Shown: in pieces, positions 1,096 to 35,866 of the stretch
Layout: every line of letters begins with the position of its first letter
Numbering within the stretch: the stretch's first letter is position 1
Origin: Auricularia sp. M13
Lineage: Eukaryota > Basidiomycota > Agaricomycetes > Auriculariales > Auriculariaceae
Assembly (NCBI GenBank): GCA_037042915.1
Contig: CM073196.1
Coordinates: forward strand, 3,906,001 to 3,970,000
Length of the DNA: 64,000 bases
Reading direction: 5' to 3'
The notes under the pieces: generated by a model
What the model was told of the DNA's origin: nothing
The model's input: the letters and a program-made list of their open reading frames with translations, nothing else
Database searches by the model: none
Made by a program: the position numbers and the translations under genes

Positions 1096-1254
1096 ATGGC
1101 TATCTCCTCCGCTACCGCTCTCGTCGACTACTCCGCCAACAAGGGGGGCAGTAACGAGGTCCAGTGCTCCACTTGCGGAGTCTGCTACCCGTCGGGCCAC
1201 AAGCACGTCTGCAGCGGCAGCAACACTACCAACACTACGGCTCCCGGCACCTAG
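1096..1254 (+). CDS. Small cysteine-rich (metallothionein-like) peptide, type A, copy 1
   Basis: A 52-residue intronless ORF, MAISSATALVDYSANKGG onward. The core is CSTCGVCY followed by HKHVC, so four Cys in a CxxCxxC...C pattern plus two His, with an NTTNTT tail. It has a TATA box about 70 bp upstream and A at position -3 (GCAATGG). Its predicted protein is the same in copy 2 (6798-6956), although indels occur around it. The N-terminus (M-x-S-S-x-x-A-L-V-D-x-S) and the CxxCxVCY core match the divergent gene at 5514-5684, so the two define a family. A metal-binding or redox role is inferred from composition; no named family was recognised. No signal peptide and no CaaX tail, which argues against a secreted effector or a mating pheromone. 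Confidence 0.7.
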   Translation: MAISSATALVDYSANKGGSNEVQCSTCGVCYPSGHKHVCSGSNTTNTTAPGT

Positions 1255-1942
1255 TGTACGTCCCTCTCCTGCTCGACTCCATTCCATATGCATGTGCATT
1301 GCTGAAGTTCTTCAGTCGCTGTTATCAACCATCGTGGCGATGTCTTGTTCACATTCTGGACGCATGATATGGGGCTTTGTACTGTGTTCCATGTTCAATA
1401 GACATCGTGTTTAACTCGAGCTCCCACTCGCGAACGTGAAGAACTAGTGCCAGCTCTTCGATCGGATGCAAGTCTTTCTCTCTCTCATCAAATCATCACA
1501 TCGTGTTCAAAGTCGTCACCACATTGCCACATGTGGGCCTGAGACGACTTCAGCGAACCATCCCTGCCGTATCTTGGGCTCATGACGTCTAGCAGCCCGC
1601 TTCGACGGCGCGGAGTAAACGGGTGGGTCGTCGAGGATACCACTGAGGGCGGCATCTTGCGGGGTTACTGTAAGCTTTTTCTGTCTGCCCGCCATGTACA
1701 GTGAGAGTCAGGCGAAGTGACATTCTCCAACGTCGAGACCATTGTGGTCAAAATCCTTATCGGGACTGGCGGGCGTCCGGGCGCGCGACCCGAGCTCTCG
1801 TCTCACCCTTACCTACCACCATCCATCTACTAGGCGGGTGTCTAGGCCGACATGTTACTTGTAGCCGCCGAGCATACAGAAGACTCGCACCGTGCCGCAC
1901 GCGTAGCGTATACGCACTTAATGGCTGGCAGGCCGTCGGAGG
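1255..1942. other. Intergenic stretch, no gene seen (copy 1)
   Basis: This is the 3' flank of the small cysteine-rich gene followed by the 3' flank of the converging F-box gene. I see an AATAGA-like polyadenylation context near 1396 but no coding exon. The equivalent stretch of copy 2 is 6957-7644. Confidence 0.5.
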
Positions 1943-2724
1943 TCACTTCTCGGAGTTGGGGAACGCAGCAAAATCGGCGCAAAGAGGGAAAATGCGCGAT
2001 GTACGCGGAACGGGCTGTGCGTCATTTTGCTGGTCACAGCAATAGGTACAGAGATGCAGCTTCTCCACGGATTCTTTGAACAATAAAGCCCAACATACAG
2101 TATCAACGACATCTTGGAATGGAATTCGATGCTCGGTGACGCCGGCGCCACGAAGATGGATCCTGGACAGAGTCGACGATGGTCCGCTGTACGCAGAAGA
2201 TATCTGGAAAACCCGTTCCCCGGTCTTGAGGGCGTGTGTCGGTGCTGCGACGGCCCTCAATTTCCGACAGCGCGTCATGATCTCGACAAGCGCTGGTGTA
2301 TGGCCGTCGCGGTCGCCTAGCAGCTCGTGCGAGAGTTGGGCCCATGGAGAAAAGTACATCGGAGATGCGTCGCGCTTGCGAAGCATCGGCATGCCTAAGA
2401 GAGGAACGCCCGGAAGCTGCAATTCAAAACGCGATCCGCGAGGGCAGGTCGAGTGCGCAGTGTCCGAGCAAAATAATCGCATTGAGCAGGGGTAGACAGC
2501 CGAACATGCAAATATAGGACTTCCTGCCCAGCAGCAAGCCAATTCCTACAGGTCAGACACGAGCTGGCCAGAGTGCGAAGGTCGGCATGATGAATCCAAG
2601 GCTGGCCTTGTGGCTGGAGTTGTGTCAATATGATTATTAGAATTTCGGGAGGTAAAGCTCCAGCTAAGCTCTGGGGTTCCTGTTTCTCCTCGGGCTGTGA
2701 ATACGTGAAAAGGCGTTGAAGCAT
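1943..2724 (-). pseudogene. F-box protein gene, copy 1, frameshifted
   Basis: This is the counterpart of the intact F-box gene at 7645-8445. The N-terminal F-box (LPPEILIIILTQLQPQG, then the DLRTLASSCLTCRNWL helix) is intact. Near 2424 this copy lacks one G that copy 2 has (AATTCAAAAC against AATTCGAAAAC), which shifts the frame and ends the protein soon afterwards. The upstream ATG of copy 2 (8445) is also TTG here, leaving the ATG at 2724. A single-base assembly error cannot be excluded. Confidence 0.75.
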
Positions 2725-2838
2725 GCTGTTGGCTGAGTACAAGGTGCTGAGTCGGCAAGAAGCCGGATGATCGCCGGTTTCAGCTTTCCTTCGTCCCGAC
2801 GGTCGCGTACGTAGCTCGGCTTGAGCTCCTTTTCTCAC

Positions 2839-4219
2839 ATGCAACTACCCAGCGATTCCTGGAAAACGCCAGCAGAGCTGGTTGAACATTGGTCTAGTCC
2901 GCATAAAGCTTGGACCGAGGTCCCATTCGACGCGGTCGAACATCTTGGCGGCGGCCTTCGTTCACCACCTGTCGGCTGCCGGGCAAATCGTTCGAAATAC
3001 GCAGTGGGAGGAAACGCGATTATCATAGGTAAGAATAGCGTTCTTTCACCGTTGATAAGCCTTAAATCTTTTGACTCGGTCACAGAGCTTTTATTTGACG
3101 ATGGTGTAGTCTGGATAGCGAAGCTCTTCACATATCACTACGAACCATACGCGTTACCTATCAACGTCGTCCGTCAGAAGGTCCGCTGCGAGGTGGCCAC
3201 TCTAAAGGTCGTGAAAGAACGCACGTCGATCCCAGTCCCGACACCCTTCGGATTTTCAGCAACAGCCGATAATCCTGTCGGTCTGCCTTACATCTTTATG
3301 TCTGCCCTCATCGGACATAATCCCTTCGATGTCGGTATTCCTATGTGGGTTTCAGGCGAGCCAGTCACGCCCGAGGGGCAGCGTCTACTCGACACCTACT
3401 GCCTTTCACTCGCAAAGGTTCATCTGGAGCTGAAGAAGATTTCGGAGGACCGAATCGGCTGCTTCTACGTCGATGACCAGGATTCCTCTGTTTATTACCT
3501 TGGTCCAGACGCAGAGACTGGGATTGGTCCGTGCTCGACGTCAGCCGAATTCTATGCTTCGTATGGCCAATTTATTATGAAGGACGCACTTCGATCCGAG
3601 CCTCCCGGGAAACACGAAGATCGCCTCTTCGGTGTCTGGCTCTCTCGGCTTTTGCTCTCTGTCGCCTGTGATCAGGTAGAGGGGACCTCAGGGAGATATT
3701 ATTTGAAGCATCACGATTTGCATGCCAACAACATTCTCGTTTCTAAGGTGTGCGATATTCCAATGGTCTATTGTACCGGGATAGCTTATTCATATTGGAC
3801 AGACCGGCGAGATCGTCGGCGTAGTGGACTGGGACAGTGCTACCTGCGTGCCAGAGGAACTCTTCGCTGCCCAGGCTCTCGGGTTCTACAAGGATGTGGG
3901 TCGGCACAATGCAGATCAACTGGCATTGTTCGACGTATACAATCGTGCTTTGCGCGAGGCCGAATCCGGCACCCAGCTTCTACCGTCAGGTCGTTCGCTC
4001 GCGGAACTGCACAGCCTGACGCTAGTCCAAATGCTTGTGAGGCTCGAGATGATTATTGGTGGTGATCCTGCCATTTACGGCGCTCCTTGGTTCTGGGGGA
4101 TCCACTGCAGGCATCTGCTTGGAACCGCTGATTGGCAACCGATCAAAGAGTCGCCAATCTTTCAGGAATGGTTCTCGTCGTTGACACGGCATGCTGGGAC
4201 CAAGGGAGATGTACTATAA
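2839..4219 (+). CDS. APH-type (aminoglycoside phosphotransferase-like) kinase
   Basis: Three exons (2839-3028, 3086-3747, 3803-4219) join in frame to 422 residues. The phosphotransferase (APH/ChoK-like) fold is shown by the catalytic loop HHDLHANNILV, ending exon 2, and by VVDWDSATC (the DFG-equivalent, metal-binding Asp) opening exon 3. An LLFDDGVVWIAKL segment near residue 70 supplies the nucleotide-binding Lys. This lineage-expanded fungal family usually has unknown small-molecule substrates; antibiotic resistance should not be assumed. The first intron (57 nt) reads through without stops, but its removal restores a good beta strand. Two 5'-truncated relatives lie at 25062 and 35100, with an intron at the same position after the catalytic loop. 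Confidence 0.85.
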
Positions 4220-5513
4220 ATTCGGGCAGTGCACTCGCATAATGATGAGACAAGTACTGGGATGCATAGACGGCAACACCATGCTTATCTCCAGGTGACG
4301 ACGCGCCAGAATACCGTTAAAACTTGCTCAAATAACTGTTTTCCCTCAGCAACATGGAACGTGAAAACATACCTTCAGCATAGCAAGCCGCTCATTTGAC
4401 TATCAGACGCCGCAAGGCTGCCGTAATACACGGACGCATCAATCAGAGCGAGAGATTTCAACACCTTGAGCAAGGCATTGGCGCAGTGCCAGATGATTGC
4501 GACGTGACATCTGTAAACTCGCTTGACTCGGGAGCGGTCGCTTCCGGATCACCGGGAGCTCTGGCGGGATCGGTCGCGAGCACAGACATCAGGCTGCTCA
4601 ACACGGCGTTTGGCTCGTGTCGTGCTCCCAGCTGCCATACGCTGGTTGTTTTTTCATAGTTTTCTCACATGCAGTGCAGAAGTTTCGCACTCGCATAGCG
4701 CACCCGTAGAAAAGTGACGGCAGTATGGATGTGGCAAAGCGCTCCAGATTACCCAATGTGCATAGGCTTGCTGTCCCTGCTGAGCGTAGTCTCATAAGTA
4801 GGTATAGGCTAGAGCAGCCCTCAGAATCTTCCGCCGTTAACATCCATGGTCACAGATGATATGCATGCGGTACGATCGGCGTGAGCTTGTACAATAATTG
4901 CCGTCGCCCACGAGCTTAAGAACGTGGGTCGTAGCTACGTATTCTGGCTTCGGCTGCGGCAACCGTCAAAGCTGCTCAGCGAAACTCACGACGAATGCAA
5001 ACGAGCCATATCTCAAAATTTGTTCCGTTGCTTCTAGCCCCAGGACGAGCACTGAAACAGGTCGTTGGACGCCTTTTTCGGTGTGGAGAAGCCTGAGACG
5101 ACGACGATGCACACGTTGGTGACTTACTCTGCCCAGACGGGCGGCGGCAAAGTTTCATTCACAGGGCAAATATCACGCGCGCGACTCCCAGCCTGCCAGA
5201 CTCATCTTCCGGGCGGATGAGCCTTGCGTCGAGGGTACTGTAAAGACCTGAATTATTACCGCATCACGCGTCCCAGGGGTTGCGCGGCCCGGTAATAAAT
5301 GTATTTTTCAACAGGTCGCAGACCCTCGCCGGTAATAGGACTCAACCCCTGAAAGGACTCGCTGGCCCTAAGGTCAGATGAACAGGTTTGATTAACGAGG
5401 CGCAGTGACAGGGCTATGGGACATCATGGGTTGAAAACTAGCGTGCATCATAACGGCTTGGGCTGAGATGGCCCGCAACGGCAGGGAGCACATTCACTAC
5501 TAGGCCAGTGCCA
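4220..5513. other. Intergenic region, no firm gene
   Basis: About 1.3 kb between the APH kinase and the minus-strand cysteine-rich gene. The frames are short and show no family signature. The only item of note is a 37-codon ORF at 5107-5220, listed separately. Confidence 0.5.
5107..5220 (+). other. Short ORF resembling the N-terminus of the cysteine-rich family (doubtful)
   Basis: A 37-codon ORF beginning MHTLVTYSAQTGGGK. The segment LV-x-YSA-x-x-GG aligns with LVDYSANKGG of the type A peptide. The downstream part has a single Cys and no CxxCxxC core. It could be a decayed member or a chance match; no TATA box was seen at the usual distance. Confidence 0.2.
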
Positions 5514-5684
5514 TCAGTCAACAACGAATTGTGCGCGATGAGGCAAGGGAGAACAAACCGGGGTGCAAGCACAGGCATCGCACTTGGTGCCCGACTTGAT
5601 CTCCTTGTAACAGACGACGCAGAAATTGCACTTCTGAGGAGCCAATGAAGAGTCGACGAGGGCGTGGATAGTAGACGAGAGCAT
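5514..5684 (-). CDS. Small cysteine-rich (metallothionein-like) peptide, type B
   Basis: A 56-residue intronless ORF beginning MLSSTIHALVDSSLAPQK. It carries CNFCVVCY, then a linker, then CDACAC and a further Cys: eight Cys arranged CxxCxxC...CxxCxC...C. The ALVD motif and the CxxCxVCY core show common descent with the type A peptide. A TATA box (5737-5743) lies 53 bp upstream. It is transcribed away from the type A gene of copy 2 (6798), with about 1.1 kb of shared upstream DNA. A GT...TAG intron after the CDACACTP segment is possible and would end the protein at once, 14 residues shorter. Metal binding is inferred from Cys spacing only. Confidence 0.65.
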   Translation of the reverse strand: MLSSTIHALVDSSLAPQKCNFCVVCYKEIKSGTKCDACACTPVCSPLPHRAQFVVD

Positions 5685-5736
5685 CACGGCAAATGGTTTC
5701 GGGGTGCGTAAAGTCGAACAAGATCACTCGTTTCGT

Positions 5737-5743
5737 CCTTATA
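5737..5743 (-). promoter_or_regulatory. TATA box of the type B cysteine-rich gene
   Basis: TATAAGG on the minus strand, 53 bp before the ATG at 5684. Short spacing of this kind suits a strongly inducible gene. Confidence 0.6.
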
Positions 5744-6720
5744 CAGGTGGAATACGAGGGTGGGCAGGTGGGCCACGTGTACAAAGAACTACGGATGATG
5801 CGAGAACGAGCATGGGGCCGCGAGGCACGGACGTTTTCCTTCCCATTGTGAGCGTGTGTCGGGATTCCGCGGAGCAACCAGCTCGAATTTCTATGGACAA
5901 AAATGACGACCATGGTATGGAACGCTCTGTGCAGTCTGCTCTCCGAGCTCTCCGTACGAACGAGATGTGACTGAAACATTGACATCGGAGTCGGTGCCGT
6001 AGGAGACGCTGGTTCATTTCTCAATCATTTCTCGCGGGGATTTCCTCTGGGGTCCTTGAGCACGAAGCACGCAACCATTTCGGGCATGCGGCACGCGGGT
6101 TGCTTCTTTCTCTCGGCTCAGCCAAATTGGTCAACGGAAACAATAGCCGCTGACAGGCTTCTCTCACACTTCGCAGGAAATTCGTCCGCTCATCCGGACT
6201 TCGCCGGCGTGCACCGCCCATGATGTATTCTCGACGGGAACGTGCGTTCCTGCACCGATTTCAAGAATATATCCTGCGCGTTTTGCTGGATCCGCTTCCC
6301 TGGGAGTCCAAACATGTCGCGCTCCCTCGTCCATGTGGACAGCGCGGACAAGCGCGATCGGGCGGTTCGCGATGTGTTCTCTCGCCAGCCGCTCGAGGGC
6401 TGGAACATGCGACAAAAGGGAAAGAAATGAAGCCGTACTGTCAGTTGACGCATGCATGTGTCAGAAGTTATCCCGAATCCGGGCTGCCCCGCTCCATCGA
6501 AGCAAGCAGAGCAGCTGCACATCCACCGAAGAGTTCATTTGCATCTACTCGGCGGCGCTGATACTGCGCAATTCTCGTCCCTTGCGATGCACCCGTCGAA
6601 TTCGGGGTGGGTTCCTGTCTCACATGTGTGTCCTTCTGCGCGAAAGAAAGGCGCATAATATCTCTGACGCAACGATAGTATGCGGGACCCCGTGCGTCCC
6701 GCTTCACAGGTCCTGAAAGG

Positions 6721-6727
6721 TATAAAG
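6721..6727 (+). promoter_or_regulatory. TATA box of small cysteine-rich gene, copy 2
   Basis: TATAAAG about 70 bp upstream of the ATG at 6798; identical to that of copy 1. Confidence 0.6.
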
Positions 6728-6797
6728 GGTACGCTTAGAAACGGTTGAGACCCCATCTGCGACGCCCGAACACATTTCTGACGCAACTCCCCGCGCA

Positions 6798-6956
6798 ATG
6801 GCTATCTCCTCCGCTACCGCTCTCGTCGACTACTCCGCCAACAAGGGGGGCAGTAACGAGGTCCAGTGCTCCACTTGCGGAGTCTGCTACCCGTCGGGCC
6901 ACAAGCACGTCTGCAGCGGCAGCAACACTACCAACACTACGGCTCCCGGCACCTAG
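6798..6956 (+). CDS. Small cysteine-rich (metallothionein-like) peptide, type A, copy 2
   Basis: The predicted protein is identical to copy 1 at 1096-1254 (52 residues, CSTCGVCY core, HKHVC). Upstream DNA differs by single-C indels, yet the coding part is unchanged, which fits selection on the protein or a very young duplication. It forms a divergent pair with the type B gene on the minus strand, so the intervening 1.1 kb is a candidate shared control region. Confidence 0.7.
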   Translation: MAISSATALVDYSANKGGSNEVQCSTCGVCYPSGHKHVCSGSNTTNTTAPGT

Positions 6957-7644
6957 TGTACGTCCCTCTCCTGCTCGACTCCATTCCATATGCATGTGCA
7001 TTGCTGAAGTTCTTCAGTCGCTGTTATCAACCATCGTGGCGATGTCTTGTTCACATTCTGGACGCATGATATGGGGCTTTGTACTGTGTTCCATGTTCAA
7101 TAGACATCGTGTTTAACTCGAGCTCCCACTCGCGAACGTGAAGAACTAGTGCCAGCTCTTCGATCGGATGCAAGTCTTTCTCTCTCTCATCAAATCATCA
7201 CATCGTGTTCAAAGTCGTCACCACATTGCCACATGTGGGCCTGAGACGACTTCAGCGAACCATCCCTGCCGTATCTTGGGCTCATGACGTCTAGCAGCCC
7301 GCTTCGACGGCGCGGAGTAAACGGGTGGGTCGTCGAGGATACCACTGAGGGCGGCATCTTGCGGGGTTACTGTAAGCTTTTTCTGTCTGCCCGCCATGTA
7401 CAGTGAGAGTCAGGCGAAGTGACATTCTCCAACGTCGAGACCATTGTGGTCAAAATCCTTATCGGGACTGGCGGGCGTCCGGGCGCGCGACCCGAGCTCT
7501 CGTCTCACCCTTACCTACCACCATCCATCTACTAGGCGGGTGTCTAGGCCGACATGTTACTTGTAGCCGCCGAGCATACAGAAGACTCGCACCGTGCCGC
7601 ACGCGTAGCGTATACGCACTTAATGGCTGGCAGGCCGTCGGAGG

Positions 7645-8445
7645 TCACTTCTCGGAGTTGGGGAACGCAGCAAAATCGGCGCAAAGAGGGAAAATGCACG
7701 ATGTACGCGGAACGGGCTGTGCGTCATTTTGCTGGTCACAGCAATAGGTACAGAGATGCAGCTTCTCCACGGATTCTTTGAACAATAAAGCCCAACATAC
7801 AGTATCAACGACATCTTGGAATGGAATTCGATGCTCGGTGACGCCGGCGCCACGAAGATGGATCCTGGACAGAGTCGACGATGGTCCGCTGTACGCAGAA
7901 GATATCTGGAAAACCCGTTCCCCGGTCTTGAGGGCGTGTGTCGGTGCTGCGACGGCCCTCAATTTCCGACAGCGCGTCATGATCTCGACAAGCGCTGGTG
8001 TATGGCCGTCGCGGTCGCCTAGCAGCTCGTGCGAGAGTTGGGCCCATGGAGAAAAGTACATCGGAGATGCGTCGCGCTTGCGAAGCATCGGCATGCCTAA
8101 GAGAGGAACGCCCGGAAGCTGCAATTCGAAAACGCGATCCGCGAGGGCAGGTCGAGTGCGCAGTGTCCGAGCAAAATAATCGCATTGAGCAGGGGTAGAC
8201 AGCCGAACATGCAAATATAGGACTTCCTGCCCAGCAGCAAGCCAATTCCTACAGGTCAGACACGAGCTGGCCAGAGTGCGGAGGTCGGCATGATGAATCC
8301 AAGGCTGGCCTTGTGGCTGGAGTTGTGTCAATATGATTATTAGAATTTCGGGAGGTAAAGCTCCAGCTAAGCTCTGGGATTCCCGTTCCTCCTCGGGCCG
8401 TGAATACGTGAAAAGGCGTTGAAGCATGGTGTTGGCTGAGTACAA
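7645..8445 (-). CDS. F-box protein
   Basis: A 266-residue single-exon protein. Residues about 25-75 form an F-box: SLAGALPPEILIIILTQLQP, then DLRTLASSCLTCRNWLAAGQ and a beta strand EVLYLHVRL. The remainder has no named repeat but looks like the degenerate leucine-rich region of agaricomycete F-box proteins. F-box proteins link substrates to SKP1-CUL1 ubiquitin ligases; the target is unknown. The start could also be the second ATG (8427), because copy 1 lacks the first. This is the intact one of three related sequences in the window (1943-2724 frameshifted; 10118-10330 relic). Confidence 0.8.
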   Translation of the reverse strand: MYSANTMLQRLFTYSRPEEERESQSLAGALPPEILIIILTQLQPQGQPWIHHADLRTLASSCLTCRNWLAAGQEVLYLHVRLSTPAQCDYFARTLRTRPALADRVFELQLPGVPLLGMPMLRKRDASPMYFSPWAQLSHELLGDRDGHTPALVEIMTRCRKLRAVAAPTHALKTGERVFQISSAYSGPSSTLSRIHLRGAGVTEHRIPFQDVVDTVCWALLFKESVEKLHLCTYCCDQQNDAQPVPRTSCIFPLCADFAAFPNSEK

Positions 8446-8690
8446 TGTGCTGAGTCGGCAAGAAGCCGGATGATCGCCGGTTTCAGCTTTCCTTCGTCCC
8501 GTGTGTCATTCGAACGCTGCGACACGCCTTTCCGATGCTGCGCAGTAGCCGTGACCGTTAAATCAACAATATGAAGTCGTTTGCGATATGGGCCGGCCGC
8601 CGACGCGCGTTCACTGCACGCCGATGGAATTTAAGCACAACCTGTCGCGATGTTCTCCCTTTCGGACGCCATTAGCCCGTTGTCGTTTCG

Positions 8691-10117: not shown

Positions 10118-10330
10118 GACGCCAGAGTGCGGAGGTCGGCGTAATGAATCGAGGCTTGCCTTGTGGCAGGAGCTGTGCCAATATGATCACGATGATTTCC
10201 GGAGGTGATGCTCCAGCTAAGCTCTGAGGTTTCTCCTCGGGCAGCGAATTCGTGAAAACATGCTCAGGCTGAATCATACTGTACGGTTGAACGTTGAACG
10301 TTGATAGCAAGCTGCGGACTCGGCAATAAG
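10118..10330 (-). pseudogene. F-box gene relic (N-terminal fragment)
   Basis: The minus strand reads LAGASPPEIIVIILAQLLPQG, clearly related to the F-box of the gene at 7645-8445. Homology covers only the F-box and a short leader. The frame is lost after PRFITPTSALWRLH and there is no downstream C-terminal part. Confidence 0.75.
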
Positions 10331-14889: not shown

Positions 14890-17800
14890 CCCGTGTTCCG
14901 TTGCCGAGAAGGGCAAGGATAAGCCAAAGCGCTGTCCGGTCGGACAATCCAGCTCTTGAGCTCTCTTTTGCTAATTGAGAGCTCATATTGCGCTTCAATA
15001 TATATAAATGCTGTATGTGAAGTGCTGTGGCAGCAGGAGAGCAGGATGGGTCAGGAATGCCAACCGGAGGCAATCCGATCTAATCTTATCAGCAGAGATA
15101 TCAGACAAACCGTGAAGAAGGTTTTTGGTAAATAAATATGCATTTTTGAGCTCGAAATAAACTATTGAATGGTACAAGGGGCTTCCGGGATTCCACTGCT
15201 CGGTGAGATCCTCGATTTGGAGGAGCTCGGCCGTCTCCGAAGACTCGGATGAACATTCGGACTCCGAAAGACCCGCTCAGACTCCCCAGCTCCCTCCCTC
15301 CCTTCAGTGTGAAATTTCTCCAAATTGAAGTAATACTATTTATCCTTAATGTTTCGCAAAAATTTGAGCTATAAGAACATGGGAATTCTGTATTTTATAC
15401 TGCCATCAGCAGTCAATGGGTGGAACAATAGTGGTACCTAACTGTTCTCAGCAGAAGGACAGTGAGAATAATAGCACATATATTGATAAAAAACTGATTA
15501 TATTATGGGATGGAATTGATGGCAGCAACCTTGATGGGTGGATGTGGTGGCGAGCAGCAAACTGCTCATTGTCACGGTGACTGCTATATCACTCTCCGAG
15601 ACGACGCTCGAGGGGTAGGGATGAGTGGGGAGAGGGAGGCGCGGATAAGCGGTATGATAGACCAGACCAAACCTAAGGTACAAGAGGGGGCTCCGGCCCA
15701 AGTATATATACTACAGAAGCAAGGCCAAGGGGGCCTGCGGACCAATTGCGCCACCGACCGGGTGTCACGCGGGCGCCACAGATCAGGCCGAGAGAGACCG
15801 CCAGGGTGTCCTCTGCGAGACAGGAAACCCGGGATATAGAGCCCAACCAAACCAGAAACATCCCGTCGTATTACCCTTCTCCTGGGAAGAGACCAAAATG
15901 CTCGCCGAGCGGAGAGACCACTAGGACGCGCCAACGGAAGGGCTGCGGGGCCAGGCGCAAGGAGTTTGGGGCGCCCAAATGAAGTGCGAGGACCACGGGA
16001 CGGCGAAATGAAACAGCGGGGGAGGAGGGAGCCGACAAAGACCGCAACATAACCCCCCTTCTAGCCGTCCAGTGGCCGAGGTGAGGACGGCCCGAAGAGG
16101 TGCGGGTTAGATTGGGCGTGGAGAGACAGACCATAGCATCGCCGGGCCGAGCTCCATCCACCGCGGGATCAAACTCTAAGCGTCAGATGCCGCGAAGGGC
16201 TCGGCCGTCGCCGTACACGAACCGCGGTACTTCTCCCTCCTCGTCTCCTTGCTTCCTGCCACCGCCCAATATCCCATGACGCCCACTGCCGCCGACGGAC
16301 TGACGGCAAAGCCTCTCGGCAAACTTCGGGACCTCAGGGAGCAGGTGTTTACGCTGCATGCCTCGATCCAGCGCCAGCTGAACTTCGGGCACTACGCCGC
16401 GGACGCGGAGGAAGAGAAGGCGCGGTGCTCGCGTCTTGTAAACAGACCGGGTTTCGCTACGCTTCACCAGTACTTTCTAGTCTTTTCCATTGAGTCAGTA
16501 CCCTCGGTTGCCTTATGACTCAGTATGTTCTCGTGCATGTATAAATAGTTAGGTAGTTAGTTTACTGCAATTCGACCTTTGTTTGCCTTATCTCTACTTT
16601 GGCACATTGCCGGCCGCGTCTGATCCACGCCGCCCCGTCCCTCTCCGTTACCGCCTGCCGCCGGCCATTCGACCTGCCAGGCTCAGACTCCGCGCACCCG
16701 GGCGCCGCGTCTCGCTATTCCGATTGCCTGTTGGCCGCTCAAGGTTGAACCCGCGACCCTCATTCGCGAATACGCACGTTGAACAGCCAGGAAAGACTAA
16801 GACAATGAATACAAGAGTAGGGAGGAGCCGCAGATCAAAAGGGTGGGTGGGTGGAGTATACCCAACACACGAGAGAATAGATATAGAGGTAGAGGTGGAA
16901 TGGGAATAGGGTCTCGAGTGTGTATGATCAAAACCCGAGTGAGAATCACGAAGACGAGGTAGAACCCGAGTTCGTATTCGGAGAGCTAGAGACTACTCGT
17001 GAAGAGTCGTCTACGGGAGGAGGGTGCACGGGAGAGGAGGATTGTGAGACGGGAGTGCGTCTTTTCTTCGTCGCTGCACTGGCGAAGTCTATGACTGCGT
17101 GCGAACGCGACGAACAGAAGTAGCACGGTTCGGATGGAGAAGGCGTGGTAGGAGAAGAGGGAAGATGGTGTGCAATCACGGAAGTCGCGCCTAGGCACCG
17201 AGGGAGGGGGAAAACGGGACTTGAAGCCAACGGAGATGGCAGAGGGTGACTGAGACTTCGATTGCGTACGGACTAGAACGGAGGACGGGTGCGAGTATGA
17301 GAACTGAGCGCCGGAGTGCGCGATACTGAACTACTGGTGAGCCGGATGCTCGTGAGCCACTGTGCTGAGGGAAAACTACCTAACTACCTATCGCGTTTTA
17401 TACAGGAGAATGCCAAGCCAATCAAGACCATATTCCGAGCTGTACCGATAATGCCCATGCGATAGGAAGCGTTCCCGATTGTCACATGCGGACTGCGCGC
17501 GCCTGCGGGTTGCGCAATCCGTTCTCGGGAGCCAATGAGAGGCCGATTCTGTGAGCGTGTGATTCAGAGTTTGCTCCAAAGGAAAGACTACCGATCGTCC
17601 ACAAGTGTGCTGCGGCCTGCCCTGCCGTTTGGATGACGCCATAGACCGTGGGAAAGTGCGCTGCGATCACGATGACGGGATTCCCCTAGTATGGGTTTCG
17701 TGTTCCGCATTTCCCCGGTTTCTCAGGGTGCACATGCTCAGGGACAGTAGAGAGGAAGGATGCCCTAGACCCTGGTCTGGATATGGTCCGAGGTCGCAGC

Positions 17801-19326
17801 TGGTGACGTGTTCGTGAATGCGCAGGTGCCGATATCGATTTTGGGTGAATGAGTCAGGATCGTTCTCAGTTGCTGGTGATCCCTTGGAACCGGGGACAGC
17901 GGCGTCGAGAATATTCCTTCGCAGCCAGGGCGACTGCGCACCTTCGTGGTCGTGGTATCTTTGCCGGAGTAGCACGCGATCGGGTGCGGGGACACTTTTG
18001 GGAGGCGAACGCGGGGTGTTCTCACAGTGTCGGCCGGTCGGGCACATCGCGCAAGAGGGCCCGACCGGATGTTGACATTGACGGCGACGATGGGGACCGT
18101 CCGGACCAGGATGACGTGGTGGACACCGTCGGCTCGTCTGTGGCGCGGTCGCGCACCCGCCGAAGGCTTCGGTCACCGGGGACGGCCACCATGGCCGACC
18201 TCGAGGTCCTGGGCGACCACATTGTCCAGGGGTTCCAACTGTCCGTCTCGGCACTGCGGCGCGACCTTTGCAAATGGATGCAAGAACTCGTTGACGACCG
18301 GCAGGCTTACAAGATGGTGCGCCTTGTGTCGCCAGGCAGGAGCGACCACGATACCGAATCCAACGACGGCTGAGCGATGGAGGACGAGGCAGGGAGGTCG
18401 CCCATTGCCGCGCCGACTACCCCTGGCGTCTCGGGCGTGGAGACGGAGGCGCCGGCTGATTCTGTCGGCGTGCTCGCTGATTTCGGCGCCGACCTGGCCC
18501 TCCTCGGTGTGGTAGTGCCGGGGAGTGCGCGGCCGACACCCAGCTTCGCGTCGATGGGGTGTTGCGAGCATCGTTGCGAGCTGTTGCGAGCTCGCTGTGA
18601 TACCCCCCTATTGTGTGTGAGCAAGGTGCAATGCCACCTCCTCGCAACTGAAGCTACAATTCCGGCTTCTCATGCACTGTCACATTATCAGACATAAATA
18701 ACAGGCTTTTTCTTGACATATATTGCTTTTCAAGTCCTCAGGGGCGCTGATAGTATGCAGTTGAAGTTTCGCCCAGTTTCATACCTCCACTGTGACACCC
18801 AGTAGCACTGATAATATCTGTATGGAGATAAATTATCTTTGGTTTGCCTTTAATACCCTTACAAGTAATTCTCCAGATTGTGAAGGAAGGGAACCAAGTG
18901 CTTGGGGGGGAGGGGGGGGGGCTGGAGAGTCGGGGTGAGCGGGTCTTTCGGAGTCCGAATGTTCATCCGAGTCTTCGGAGACGGCCGAGCTCCTCCAAAT
19001 CGAGGATCTCACCGAGCAGTGGAATCCCGGAAGCCCCTTGTACCATTCAATAGTTTATTTCGAGCTCAAAAATGCATATTTATTTACCAAAAACCTTCTT
19101 CACGGTTTGTCTGATATCTCTGCTGATAAGATTAGATCGGATTGCCTCCGGTTGGCATTCCTGACCCATCCTGCTCTCCTGCTGCCACAGCACTTCACAT
19201 ACAGCATTTATATATATTGAAGCGCAATATGAGCTCTCAATTAGCAAAAGAGAGCTCAAGAGCTGGATTGCCCGACCGGACGGCGCTTTGGCTCATCCTT
19301 GCCCTTCTCGGCAACGGAACCCGTGC
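14890..19326. mobile_element. 4.4 kb element with about 420 bp terminal inverted repeats
   Basis: The left arm (14890-15303) matches the reverse complement of the right arm (18903-19326) at roughly 95 percent by eye. Shared landmarks include the AGAGAGCTCAAGAGCTGG end, TATATAAATGCTGTATGTG, and a final G/C homopolymer tract. The interior (15304-18902) is GC-rich and shows no recognised transposase, reverse transcriptase or integrase. The arms could be true TIRs of a non-autonomous DNA element or two inverted copies of a smaller repeat. Differences between the arms are mostly transitions. Confidence 0.6.
17849..18373 (+). other. Possible ORF inside the long-TIR element
   Basis: The second half of this 174-residue frame looks protein-like: an acidic linker (DVDIDGDDGDRPDQDDVVD), a basic patch, then an amphipathic helix pair around VLGDHIVQGFQLSVSALRRD and CKWMQELVDDRQAYKMV. 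The first half is low-complexity. I recognise no domain. It may be the C-terminal exon of an element-borne or captured gene. Confidence 0.25.
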
Positions 19327-24941: not shown

Positions 24942-25061
24942 TGAGTGTGTCCGAACGTCAAAAGTGATTTCCCCACACTTTATACAGGTGAGAGACACCC
25001 AAGTTTGTGTGACACCCCCTTTTCAGTGGGAAATAATAAATTTACACTTTAAGAAGCATAG
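24942..25061 (-). repeat. Repeat C, uninterrupted copy
   Basis: A 120 bp inverted copy of 12655-12750 plus 13812-13836, including the site TCACTTTTGACGTTCGG. It abuts the APH kinase relic exactly at 25061/25062. Confidence 0.85.
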
Positions 25062-26005
25062 TTTTCAGCAACAGCCGACAATCCCATCGGGTGGCCATAT
25101 ATCTTTATGTCTGCTCTCATCGGCCACGATCCAAACGCTATCGGTGTTCCTGCGTGGGTTTCAGACGATCCAATTACGCCAGAGAGACAACGCCTGCTCG
25201 ACACCTACTGCCTTTCCCTCGCCAGGGTCCATGCAGAGTTAAAGAAGGTTTCGGCGGATCGCATCGGCAGCTTCTACGTCGACAACCAGGATTCCCCTGC
25301 TTACATCGGTCCTGATGCAGAGAGTGGCATCGGTCCCTTCACTACGCCAGGCGAATTCTATGCTGCATGTGGTGAATTTATGCAGAAGGACGCGCTTCGA
25401 TCTGAGCCTGTCGAGAATCACAAAGATCGCCTCTTTGGTGTTTGGTTGATGCGGTTGATGCTCTCCGCAGCCTCATTCCAGGCGAAGCACTCTCCGGGAA
25501 GATATTTTCTGACTCATCACGACCTGCATACCAATAACATTCTTGTTTCCGAGGTTTGAAACGTCCACCATAGTCTTCATCTGATTAGATAGCTAATTCG
25601 TCTTTACAGACTGGCGAGATTGTCGGCATACTCGACTGGGACAGCGCCAACTGCGTTCCCGAAGAACATTTTGCCTCGCAGGCCATCGGATTCTACAAGG
25701 AGATGGCTGGGAATAACGAGAAGCAATTGGCCTTGTTCCATGCGTACAATCGTGCTTTGCGCGAGGCCGAACCCGGCACCTTGCCGCTACCGTCTGGTCG
25801 TTCTCTCGCGGACTTGCACCAATCAACCGTAACGCAGATGCTTCTTAGGATTGACATAAGCCTCGGCGCAGACCCATTTTTCTATAGCGACCCCTGGTTC
25901 TGGGGGATCTTTTGCGTGCATCTGCTTGGAACTGCGGAGTGGCAGAAGGTCAAAGAATCGCCGACTTTTCAAGAATGGCTCTCGTCGTTGACCCAGCAGC
26001 CGTGA
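25062..26005 (+). pseudogene. APH-type kinase gene, 5'-truncated copy
   Basis: Homology to the intact kinase (2839-4219) begins at FSATADNPIG and runs to the stop. The catalytic loop THHDLHTNNILV and GILDWDSANC are present, with a GT-AG intron (about 25557-25610) at the same place. All upstream exons are missing and repeat C lies in their place, so insertion or rearrangement at the repeat removed the N-lobe. The remaining frame is open, suggesting recent loss. Confidence 0.8.
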
Positions 26006-29759: not shown

Positions 29760-32358
29760 ATGGCGAGCCAGAACCCAGTCTCGTCGTCGATAGTCGGCGT
29801 ACACTACCGTGTGGGCCGCAAAATCGGCGAGGGCTCGTTCGGGATGATATATGAAGGCAAGCAATGTAGTTGAACGCTGCCAGCGGTGGAGCCCTGACAG
29901 CTTGGCTTAGGTGTCAACTTGACCAACAACCAGACAGTGGCCATTAAATTCGTAAGTCTGAATATTCCTTATATAATTCTGAACGCTGGTCCGGTGCTCA
30001 TTGCGTTACAGGAACCCAAGAAGTCGGATGCACCGCAGCTGCGAGACGAATGCAGGGCTTATAAAATCCTGCTAGGCTGCCGTGCGTAGCTACGCCTAGC
30101 CAACTGGCCGAGTACTGACCGCTTTGCAGCTGGCGTTCCTCAGATATATCACTTCGGCTCTGAGAACGCCTACAACGTTCTGGTCATCGACTTGCTGGGA
30201 CCCAGCCTCGAAGATTTATTCGACCGTTGCGGACGGCGGTTCAGCACCAAGACAGTATGCATGGTCGCTCGCCAGATGGTCAGTCGCTGCTGGCTGCTCG
30301 CAGTTTTGATCGTGGCGGCTGACCGGATAGTCTAGATCAGCCGCGTGCAGACCATTCACGAGAAGTCTCTCATCTACCGCGACATCAAGCCTGACAATTT
30401 CCTCGTCGGCCGCCCGGGAACGCGCAACGCCAACATGATCCATGTCGTCGGTCAGTGCGGAAACACGGAGAGCCGTACATCGCTGAAACGAACGTGCTTT
30501 CGCCAGACTTCGGCATGGCAAAGCAGTACCGGGACCCCAAGACGATGCAGCACATACCGTACCGCGAGAAGAAGAGCCTGTGCGTCCTCTTCCCCTGCCT
30601 CGTGTTGCGCATCTTCTGACCCTGCATCAGGTCGGGCACCGCGCGCTACATGAGCATCAACACGCATCTTGGCCGCGGTATGTGCTCCGCCCATCCTTGC
30701 GCAATGATGGGCTGACACAAGAGGCCAGAGCAATCAAGACGCGACGATCTCGAGGCGCTGGGTCACGTGTTTATGTACTTTGCCCGCGGCTCGCTGCCGT
30801 GGCAAGGCCTCAAGGCCGCGACCAACAAGCAGAAGTACGAGAAGATTGGAGAGAAGAAGCAGACGACGTCCATAAAGGAGCTCTGCGAAGGCTTCCCTGG
30901 TACGTCCCTCCACTTGCACCACCGGCTGAGTCCATATATCGCGCGGGATATGTCGTGCACGGTTTCCATTACGGGGCATCACAGTGCTCGCACCGAAATC
31001 CGCAACGAAATTCGCCGCGGGTCGATACGCTGCGACTCGAAACGCTCCCTCTTCACATGACATTTATTCCATCGTCCCCCACACCCATCCGTTTATAATC
31101 CATGCAGTAGGGGGGCATCACAGTGCTCTCAACGACTCGCATCGCGAAGTCGCTGCGAAATTGCGGCGTTGCGAGTCCGCGAGTCGCAAAGGCTCACAGC
31201 GGCTCGCAACGTCTACTCTCGCAGCGCTTGTTTCTGCAATGATCGTTGTCCCCTACACCATCCGTCCATACCCACGTATTCTTCCTCGTTTTCAGCGCTG
31301 GATATTCGCGGAGTGCGTGGCTTTGCGAGTAACGTTGCGAACAGCTTTGACAGCCCTTGCTCGCAGCGACGCTCGTAACGTTCCCGTCGCAACATTTCGT
31401 TGCGAGCAGTGTTGCGAACTCTTGCGGGCTCGCTGTGATGTCCCCTAAATTCCTGCATCGTTCTTTGCACCGTGTAACCATGATCTACGCGGCGTCACGA
31501 GTAACGTCGCGAGGGGTATCACAACTTCTGCCCGCAATGGCGTTCGCGCCGTTCCCGTTCTCGTCATGCCCGGCGCAACATTTGTTGCGGGTAGCGTTGC
31601 GAGCTCGCTGTGTTACCTTTGTTGTCCCTAATACGCGCCGCGGATGCATCTGTTACCTACCAGGGCAGGCAGCAGCGGTCCCATATCCCTGATAGGTGCC
31701 AGGTTGACTGAGCACGCATATCTGGGACATATTGTGAGCTGCGCACAGGATATTGTCGGACTCAGCCAGTGGTGTTGCGACCTATCAACTTTGCTCACTG
31801 CCCTTTGCAGAGGAGTTTGCGATCTATTTAAATTATGTGCGGAAACTGGGCTTCGAGGAGACACCGGACTACGATTTCCTGCGGGACCTGTTCAAAAAGG
31901 TGTTGAAGAACATCGGCGAGACCGACGACGGCTCGTACGATTGGCTGCTCGTCAACCAGGCCAAGGGATTCGACTCGGCCTCTGTGCACTCGAGTCTGCA
32001 GGTGAACCCGCAGCGGCCGTCGCGCGACCCGGGCAACCGGGGGTCGCGCAACTCGCCCGTGCCGCCGTCACCCGCGCTCGTGCGGCACGGGTCGCGGCGC
32101 AAGTCTCCACTCGAGGCGCCTGGTGCGCTGCTGTCCGGCAGCGTGCCCAACTCGGCGGTGGCACACCTGGGCGTGCCGGCGCCGCGGCGGCAGAGCATGC
32201 AGCAGCAGGAGTACGGCGGCACACCGCAGATGGTGTCGAACGGCGCTGCGCCGCCGGTGCTGAGCGACGTGCAGTACCAGCACCAGGACCTGCCCCAGCA
32301 GCAGGCGGAGGAGCAGCCGTCGACGCTGTGGAAGATCCTGACGTGCCGGTGCGGATGA
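29760..32358 (+). CDS. Casein kinase 1 (membrane-type, YCK-like)
   Basis: Nine exons (29760-29856, 29911-29951, 30012-30081, 30130-30278, 30336-30450, 30507-30579, 30631-30677, 30729-30899, 31811-32358) give 436 residues. Kinase landmarks: GEGSFG glycine loop, VAIKF lysine, [10 protein letters not shown] catalytic loop, [10 protein letters not shown], and the CK1-specific [15 protein letters not shown] and [14 protein letters not shown]. The tail is Gln/Ser/Pro-rich and ends ILTCRCG, a Cys cluster like the palmitoylation site of yeast Yck1/2, so plasma-membrane anchoring is likely. Intron 1 uses a GC donor (GCAAGC). The last intron is 911 nt and filled with small repeats, against 48-60 nt for the others. 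Confidence 0.92.
31110..31447. mobile_element. MITE in the last intron of casein kinase 1
   Basis: The ends are inverted: GGGGGGCATCACAGTG at left and CGCTGTGATGTCCCC at right, with TA on each side. Internal sequence is rich in GCGA/TCGC motifs. Fragments of the same family lie at about 30972 and 31531-31612 in this intron. A right end is seen at about 18555-18608 (GAGCTCGCTGTGATACCCCC). Confidence 0.6.
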
Positions 32359-35099: not shown

Positions 35100-35866
35100 C
35101 CACATTTTCAGTGGATCGGATCGGCTGCCTGTGCGTTGACGGCCTGGATTCCGTCGTTTATGTTGGTCCAGACGTCACCAGAGACTGGTATCAGTCCCTG
35201 CGCCACGCCAGGCGAATTCTACGCTGCGTATGGCCAGTTCATCCTGCAGGACGCCCTTCGGGCTGAACCTGTCGAAAAGCATGAAGGTCGCCTCTTCGGT
35301 GTCTGGTTGATTCGGCTTTTGCTTTCGGCTGCCTCATTCGCTGCGGAGGGGTCTCCAGGGAGATATTTCCTAACTCACCACGAGCTGCATACCAATAACG
35401 TTCTTGTTTCTGAGGTCTGGACTGTCCCGGCATCTGCATAATATCCGCATAGCTGATCAATGCCTGACAGACCGGCGAAATTGTCGGCGTACTGGACTGG
35501 GACAGCGCCAACTGCGTTCCTGAGGAACACTTTGCCTCCCAGGCCCTCGGGTTCTACAAGGAAATGAGTGGGGACAACCCAAAGCAGGCGGCGTTGTTCG
35601 AAGCCTACAACCGTGCTTTGCGCGGGGCCGAGCGTGGCACGCAGCCTCTGCCATCCGGTCGTTCGCTGGCCGACTTGCACGGGTTGACCATCACCCAAAT
35701 ACTTCACAGGATTGATATCACTGTCGGCGGGGATCCTATATTCTATGGCCTCGATTGGTTCTGGGGGATGTTTTGCGTGCATCTGCTTGGGACTCGAGAC
35801 TGGCAAAAGGTCAAAGAGTCGCCGATCTTTCAGGAATGGTTCTTAGCATTGGCGCAGAATCCTTGA
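35100..35866 (+). pseudogene. APH-type kinase gene, second 5'-truncated copy
   Basis: Homology to the intact kinase starts near DRIGCLCVDGLDSVVYVGPD and ends at the stop. It retains THHELHTNNVLV (the first catalytic-loop Asp is replaced by Glu), the intron after VSEV, and GVLDWDSANC. A one-base shift lies near 35176. The N-lobe is absent and the P450 promoter adjoins directly. Confidence 0.8.

What the first reader, a model, noticed from the sequence alone, without database searches (positions are those of the whole stretch)
5514..6956. Divergent pair of tiny cysteine-rich peptide genes forming an unrecognised family
The minus-strand 56-residue peptide (CNFCVVCY...CDACAC) and the plus-strand 52-residue peptide (CSTCGVCY...HKHVC) share M-x-SS, ALVD and CxxCxVCY. 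Each has a TATA box 50-75 bp upstream, no intron, and a shared 1.1 kb control region. The spacing differs from the CxC pattern of known fungal metallothioneins. Both are below usual gene-calling cut-offs, so they may be unannotated. A divergent, duplicated, Cys-rich pair suggests a metal- or stress-induced system.
Basis: partly seen in the sequence, partly recalled or inferred. Interest (0 to 1): 0.75.

Follow-up and report, generated by a model that had tools for sequence, protein, structure and literature searches.

The report
Triplicated pair of tiny cysteine-rich genes
Two very short, probably real fungal genes for small cysteine-containing peptides face away from each other inside a stretch of DNA that was recently copied three times in a row; what the peptides do, perhaps binding a metal such as zinc, is untested.

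Summary
The two ORFs exist as described: minus 5514-5684 (56 aa) and plus 6798-6956 (52 aa), start codons 1,113 bp apart. Both are probably real genes. The plus ORF has the best codon adaptation of 329 short ORFs in the window. The minus ORF is biased only over codons 1-42; exactly there a good 59-nt candidate intron begins, followed by a stop codon, so the product is probably 42 aa with 6 Cys, not an intronless 56 aa. Similarity of the two peptides is moderate (shuffle P about 0.002-0.008, weaker with Cys fixed or masked). Each unit also carries an APH-like kinase gene and an F-box-like gene; hybrid F-box copies point to unequal crossing-over. No third family member was found in this genome. 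The peptides lack the heptaCys motif of agaricomycete metallothioneins and any hydrophobic leader, and the intergenic region shows no excess of the metal or stress motifs tested. Best reading: short intracellular zinc-knuckle-like peptides whose dosage was raised by a recent triplication. Metal function is inference; no fungal genome collection was available to test conservation.

The parts
5497..5684 (-). minus gene as I model it: exon 5559-5684 (codons 1-42), candidate intron 5500-5558, stop codon TAG 5497-5499; without splicing the ORF is 5514-5684 (56 aa)
   Evidence: codon bias stops at the donor site; donor, branch-point-like and acceptor motifs present; identical in all three array copies. 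Splicing itself not shown.
6798..6956 (+). plus gene, 52 aa, no intron candidate found; C24 C27 C30 C39, H35 H37
5685..6797 (.). intergenic control region, 1,113 bp, TATA-like boxes at 5743-5738 (minus) and 6721-6727 (plus)
   Evidence: promoter function not shown
1096..1254 (+). copy of the plus gene from array unit B (its minus-gene partner lies just left of the window at C4 3905813-3905983)
1974..7675 (.). array unit C, 5,702 bp, third full copy of the tandem unit; units A and B lie left of it (C4 3896570-3907973)
   Evidence: 13 variable columns of 5,582 among the three units, none inside either ORF
7676..8501 (.). partial unit D, right end of the array
2839..4219 (+). APH-like phosphotransferase/kinase gene, two overlapping frames with an intron near 3750-3790 (not resolved); Pfam PF01636 below cut-off
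   Evidence: frame of 416 aa open in all three units
1943..2844 (-). F-box-like gene of unit C, split into two frames by a one-base loss near 2425
7645..8427 (-). F-box-like gene of partial unit D, open, 260 aa, with a shorter 3' end than the 434-aa copy in unit A

Best explanation
Two real, short protein-coding genes encode intracellular peptides built around a zinc-knuckle-like core, C-x2-C-x-V-C-Y ... S-G-x-K-[C/H]...C: the minus peptide (42 aa, Cys 19, 22, 25, 35, 38, 40) and the plus peptide (52 aa, Cys 24, 27, 30, 39 and His 35, 37). They are expressed from two TATA promoters facing apart, the plus gene probably strongly. Each peptide most likely folds around one zinc ion (or another thiophilic metal) and acts as a small structural or regulatory knuckle rather than as a many-metal buffer. 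Their dosage was recently tripled when unequal crossing-over between two flanking F-box-like genes repeated the 5.7-kb unit. Shown: ORFs, codon bias, array, hybrid F-box copies. Inferred: splicing, expression, metal binding, fold, function.
For: Codon adaptation and loss of it exactly at the candidate donor site; colinear shared residues; the only places of this kind in the genome are the array copies; paired CxxC knuckles, one CxC in the minus peptide and none in the plus; no hydrophobic leader (maximum Kyte-Doolittle mean over 11 residues 1.00 and 1.27); three near-identical units; F-box 3' end of unit A differs (92 of 128 columns identical to unit C) and 5' end of D differs at 7 sites, while B and C combine the A-type 5' end with the D-type 3' end, as unequal crossing-over predicts (mechanism of Fig. 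1B in PMC4232551, abstract and introduction seen).
Against: No Pfam zinc-ribbon or other curated family over its cut-off (plus only zf-C2H2_11 at 16.4 bits against a cut-off of 27). AlphaFold models are of low confidence (pLDDT 52.7 and 52.8). No solved relative (best E 0.52). Relatedness of the two peptides weakens when Cys are fixed or masked. No relatives outside this genome could be tested except non-fungal collections, which gave none. Copies are too alike for a test of selection.
Confidence: 0.45

Rival explanations
1. Metal or thiol buffer, working like a metallothionein without being a member of the known agaricomycete family: the peptides bind several Cu, Zn or Cd ions, and the tandem triplication raises tolerance by dosage, as CUP1 arrays do in yeast.
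For: Cys content 6 of 42 and 4 of 52 plus 2 His; strong codon bias in the plus gene; tandem amplification as in CUP1 (PMC4232551 abstract and introduction); small size as in the MTs of PMC12508003 (32 and 49 aa).
Against: Cys density is low beside AcMT2 (7 in 32) and AcMT1 (10 in 49); heptaCys and half-heptaCys motifs absent, CxC only once; no excess of MRE, ACE1-like or zinc-type motifs; the amplified unit also holds a kinase gene that could be the selected part.
Confidence: 0.27
2. The peptide genes are real but only passengers: the array arose by neutral unequal crossing-over between F-box genes, or was kept for the kinase, and the two peptides are unrelated small genes that look alike by chance and by sharing Cys.
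For: Similarity of the pair is moderate; Cys-masked global score is not significant (1333 of 5000); 6 of 1646 neighbouring short-ORF pairs score as high; hybrid F-box copies give a mechanical origin; kinase paralogues also lie at window 25059 and 35175.
Against: Shared residues are colinear over the whole N-terminal half, and both frames carry codon bias.
Confidence: 0.2
3. Chance ORFs, not genes, in a recently amplified segment.
For: Short; 56-codon minus ORF as a whole is not significant in codon bias (P 0.17); no homologues found.
Against: Plus ORF 0 of 5000 in codon resampling and top of 329; minus core P 0.0096; other frames of the same DNA have CAI 0.20-0.30; TATA boxes at both ends.
Confidence: 0.06
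4. Mating pheromone precursors or secreted cysteine-rich effectors.
For: Small size and Cys only.
Against: No C-terminal CaaX on any of the three forms checked and no hydrophobic leader.
Confidence: 0.02

Closest known systems
Agaricomycete metallothioneins (AcMT1/2 and relatives, PMC12508003)
   Same: small Cys-containing fungal peptides; short introns of about 50 bp; paralogue pair
   Different: no C-x4-C-x-C-x2,3-C-x-C-x4-C-x-C motif; mostly CxxC instead of CxC; fewer Cys; two His in the plus core
Yeast CUP1 tandem arrays (PMC4232551)
   Same: head-to-tail array of a small Cys-rich peptide gene, with copies nearly identical
   Different: sequence unrelated; CUP1 arrays arose by non-homologous events, this one looks like homologous exchange between two F-box-like genes; no copper link shown here
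Zinc ribbon / zinc knuckle (recalled; typical CxxC-KEI-xxG-xK-x-CxxC)
   Same: minus core CVVCYKEIKSGTKCDAC resembles the recalled pattern with one residue less between knuckles
   Different: no Pfam zinc-ribbon match; an extra CxxC before and CxC after; plus peptide has H in place of C and one residue less

Membership tests
Agaricomycete metallothionein | heptaCys motif C-x4-C-x-C-x2,3-C-x-C-x4-C-x-C | tested here: not met
   pattern scan of 42-, 56- and 52-aa forms; motif from PMC12508003 section 19
Agaricomycete metallothionein | induced by or protective against Cd, Cu or Zn | not testable with these tools
   no expression data; promoter motif counts at or below expectation
Pfam zinc finger / zinc ribbon families | match over the curated cut-off | tested here: not met
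   minus 56 aa: none; minus core: Microtub_bd only, 11.6 bits against 27; plus: zf-C2H2_11 16.4 bits against 27
Zinc-knuckle peptide (by mechanism) | paired CxxC or CxxC/HxxC ligands | tested here: met
   minus C22-x2-C25-x9-C35-x2-C38; plus C27-x2-C30-x4-H35-x3-C39 or C27-x2-C30-x6-H37-x1-C39; positions. The second plus knuckle is irregular.
Zinc-knuckle peptide (by mechanism) | folds round a bound metal | tested here: inconclusive
   AlphaFold pLDDT about 53 for both, strands 22-28 and 35-40 in the minus core, 21-23 and 30-32 in the plus; no fold search was run on such models
Basidiomycete pheromone precursor | C-terminal CaaX | tested here: not met
CUP1-type tandem array | head-to-tail repeats of a segment holding the peptide gene | tested here: met
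   three full units and one partial
CUP1-type tandem array | copy number varies among strains and gives metal tolerance | not testable with these tools
   one genome only

The most novel reading that the evidence does not exclude
A CUP1-like dosage array built not on a metallothionein but on a divergent pair of zinc-knuckle micropeptides of an undescribed family: two paralogous genes share one control region, and copy number of the whole two-gene module changes quickly through exchange between flanking F-box genes, so that one crossing-over retunes both peptides together.
Probability: 0.2. Interest if true: 0.6.

Novelty: new variant of a known kind. Interest (0 to 1): 0.4.

Why it matters
Genes this short are hard to call, so small metal-binding or regulatory peptides of mushrooms-like fungi may be under-counted. 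If the peptides prove to be passengers, the locus is still a clear example of tandem amplification by exchange between hybrid F-box genes.

Tried and rejected
Profile search of the own genome with the alignment was not accepted; a hybrid protein query made from both peptides was used instead and found only the six array copies. A weak match at C7 1282870 (34% identity, E 0.025, a stop inside) shares STIH-LV and CGFC with the minus peptide but has no start codon and no knuckle region in the stretch I translated; taken as chance, not excluded as a remnant. Eleven other genome places with the core DNA pattern were read one by one by eye; none shows SS, ALVD or SG-K beside it, and the reversed control pattern gives as many hits (17 against 17). 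Scans of viral contigs (48 pattern stretches) and of bacterial/archaeal genomes (61) gave no relative by tblastn. Solved structures: only E values of 0.52 and above. AlphaFold models too weak for a fold search, which was not run. Rfam: nothing at gathering score in window 1900-8600. Promoter motif scan: nothing in excess but TATA. Paper searches: nine of ten used; two searches found no paper; none of the listings that I saw names such a peptide pair, but subscription papers and fungal sequence databases were not searched. Papers opened: PMC12508003 (abstract, section 19, passages) and PMC4232551 (abstract and part of the introduction); all others seen as listings only. Selection test (dN/dS) rejected as pointless: no variable column falls inside either ORF.

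Full report
Where it lies. The window is bases 3906001-3970000 of contig C4 of an unnamed 52.1-Mb genome in 14 contigs. No fungal collection could be searched.

The observation. Both ORFs are there: minus 5514-5684 and plus 6798-6956. TATA-like boxes stand 59 and 77 bp before the start codons, and two TATAA[AG] in the intergenic 1,113 bp are more than expected (0.18, P 0.019).

Are they genes? I built a codon-adaptation reference from 557 codons of EF1-alpha-type and histone matches of the same genome (6 of the 16 loci fetched; the histone rows are partly redundant and one row starts with a stretch that may not be histone). The plus ORF scores 0.665 and ties only with its own array copy as the best of 329 ATG ORFs of 35-80 aa in the window. 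Resampling synonymous codons from 1,858 codons of four longer frames nearby reaches that score in 0 of 5000 trials. The minus ORF as a whole is not remarkable (0.448, P 0.17; 9 of 329 at or above it), but its first 42 codons score 0.576 (P 0.0096) and its last 14 only 0.215 (P 0.96). The break falls exactly on GTTTGT, the start of a 59-nt candidate intron with GACTGAT and CCTAG; the codon after it is TAG, and with the next AG it would be TGA. Such candidate introns are found 19 times on both strands of the whole window, real ones included. So the likely product is 42 aa with six Cys. The cut at codon 42 was chosen after seeing the intron, so its P value is somewhat flattering. Splicing is inferred.

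Are the two peptides related? They share, in the same order, ALVD, CxxCxVCY and, with one gap choice, SG-K followed by Cys. Alignment scores beat shuffles at P about 0.008 (local) and 0.002 (global), but only 0.07 and 0.02 when Cys are kept in place, and 0.03 and 0.27 when Cys are masked. The best local alignment and a second MAFFT alignment do not place the C-terminal half alike, so homology is likely over the N-terminal half and the core and open beyond it. BLASTP gives E 0.004 for the single comparison, and one of its two alignments is out of register.

A pattern search found the core of both genes three times, 5.70 kb apart. Self-comparison shows three full units and a partial fourth from C4 3896570 to 3914501, 17,932 bp, 99.2-99.5% identical over long matches. 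After the first 128 columns units A, B and C differ at 13 of 5,582 alignment columns, 11 of them gaps; none lies inside either ORF, and the minus gene with its intron and the plus gene are each letter-identical in all three units. No other copy of this DNA exists in the genome, and no N lies in the array. Single-base gaps could be sequencing errors; reads were not available, so the copy number rests on the assembly.

How the array arose. Each unit ends in an F-box-like gene on the minus strand (PF12937, below cut-off). Unit A keeps a long intact frame (434 aa matched, 462 aa open). Its 3' end differs from the other copies (92 of 128 columns identical to unit C), and partial unit D differs from A at 7 sites towards its 5' end, whereas B and C join the A-type 5' end to the D-type 3' end. 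That is the mark of unequal crossing-over between two related F-box genes that once flanked a single unit. B and C F-box frames are broken by one lost base, D is open but shorter. The kinase-like frame of 416 aa is open in all three units; its Pfam APH score is below cut-off (13.7 against 23.2 bits). As copies are so young, intact frames say little about selection.

What the peptides may do. The ligand pattern is C-x2-C-x2-C-x9-C-x2-C-x-C in the minus core and C-x2-C-x2-C-x4-H-x-H-x-C in the plus peptide. Agaricomycete metallothioneins have C-x4-C-x-C-x2,3-C-x-C-x4-C-x-C (PMC12508003 section 19); neither peptide has it, nor its inner half. Cys density is lower than in those proteins. CxxC pairs with spacing near 9 and a KEI-SG-K stretch recall zinc ribbons, from memory; Pfam does not support it at its cut-offs, and AlphaFold models are too weak to use. 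No leader peptide and no CaaX end was found. I therefore favour a small intracellular zinc-knuckle peptide (0.45) over a metal buffer (0.27), passengers (0.20) and chance (0.06). Metal or stress induction has no support in the sequence motifs tested.

Novelty. Nothing in the libraries used matches these peptides. That does not show them to be new, as fungal proteomes were out of reach. The pairing of an undescribed divergent micropeptide pair with a young tandem array is unusual but each element is of a known kind.

Noticed in passing
Ten copies aligned share the left boundary, as for a transposon end.
   Followed up: partly
window 25059-25529 and 35175-35390: Further APH-like kinase copies, 69% and 67% identical to the array's kinase, the first with a stop inside: a local kinase cluster.
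   Followed up: no
window 14895-15302 and 18908-19320: 413-bp inverted repeat, 97% identical, arms about 3.6 kb apart.
   Followed up: no
window 32197-32358 (+): 53-aa ORF with very high codon adaptation (0.626), Gln-rich and ending in WKILTCRCG; another possible short gene or first exon.
   Followed up: no
window 10121-10258: 137-bp relic, 81% identical to the 5' part of the F-box gene of the array (protein match C4 3916149-3916280, 71%), between an amidohydrolase gene and a PC-esterase-like gene.
   Followed up: no
genome contig C5 2707519/2712378 and 3211352/3216067: Two EF-1-alpha-type matches recur as a pair about 504 kb away on the same contig: a duplicated segment or an assembly effect.
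   Followed up: no
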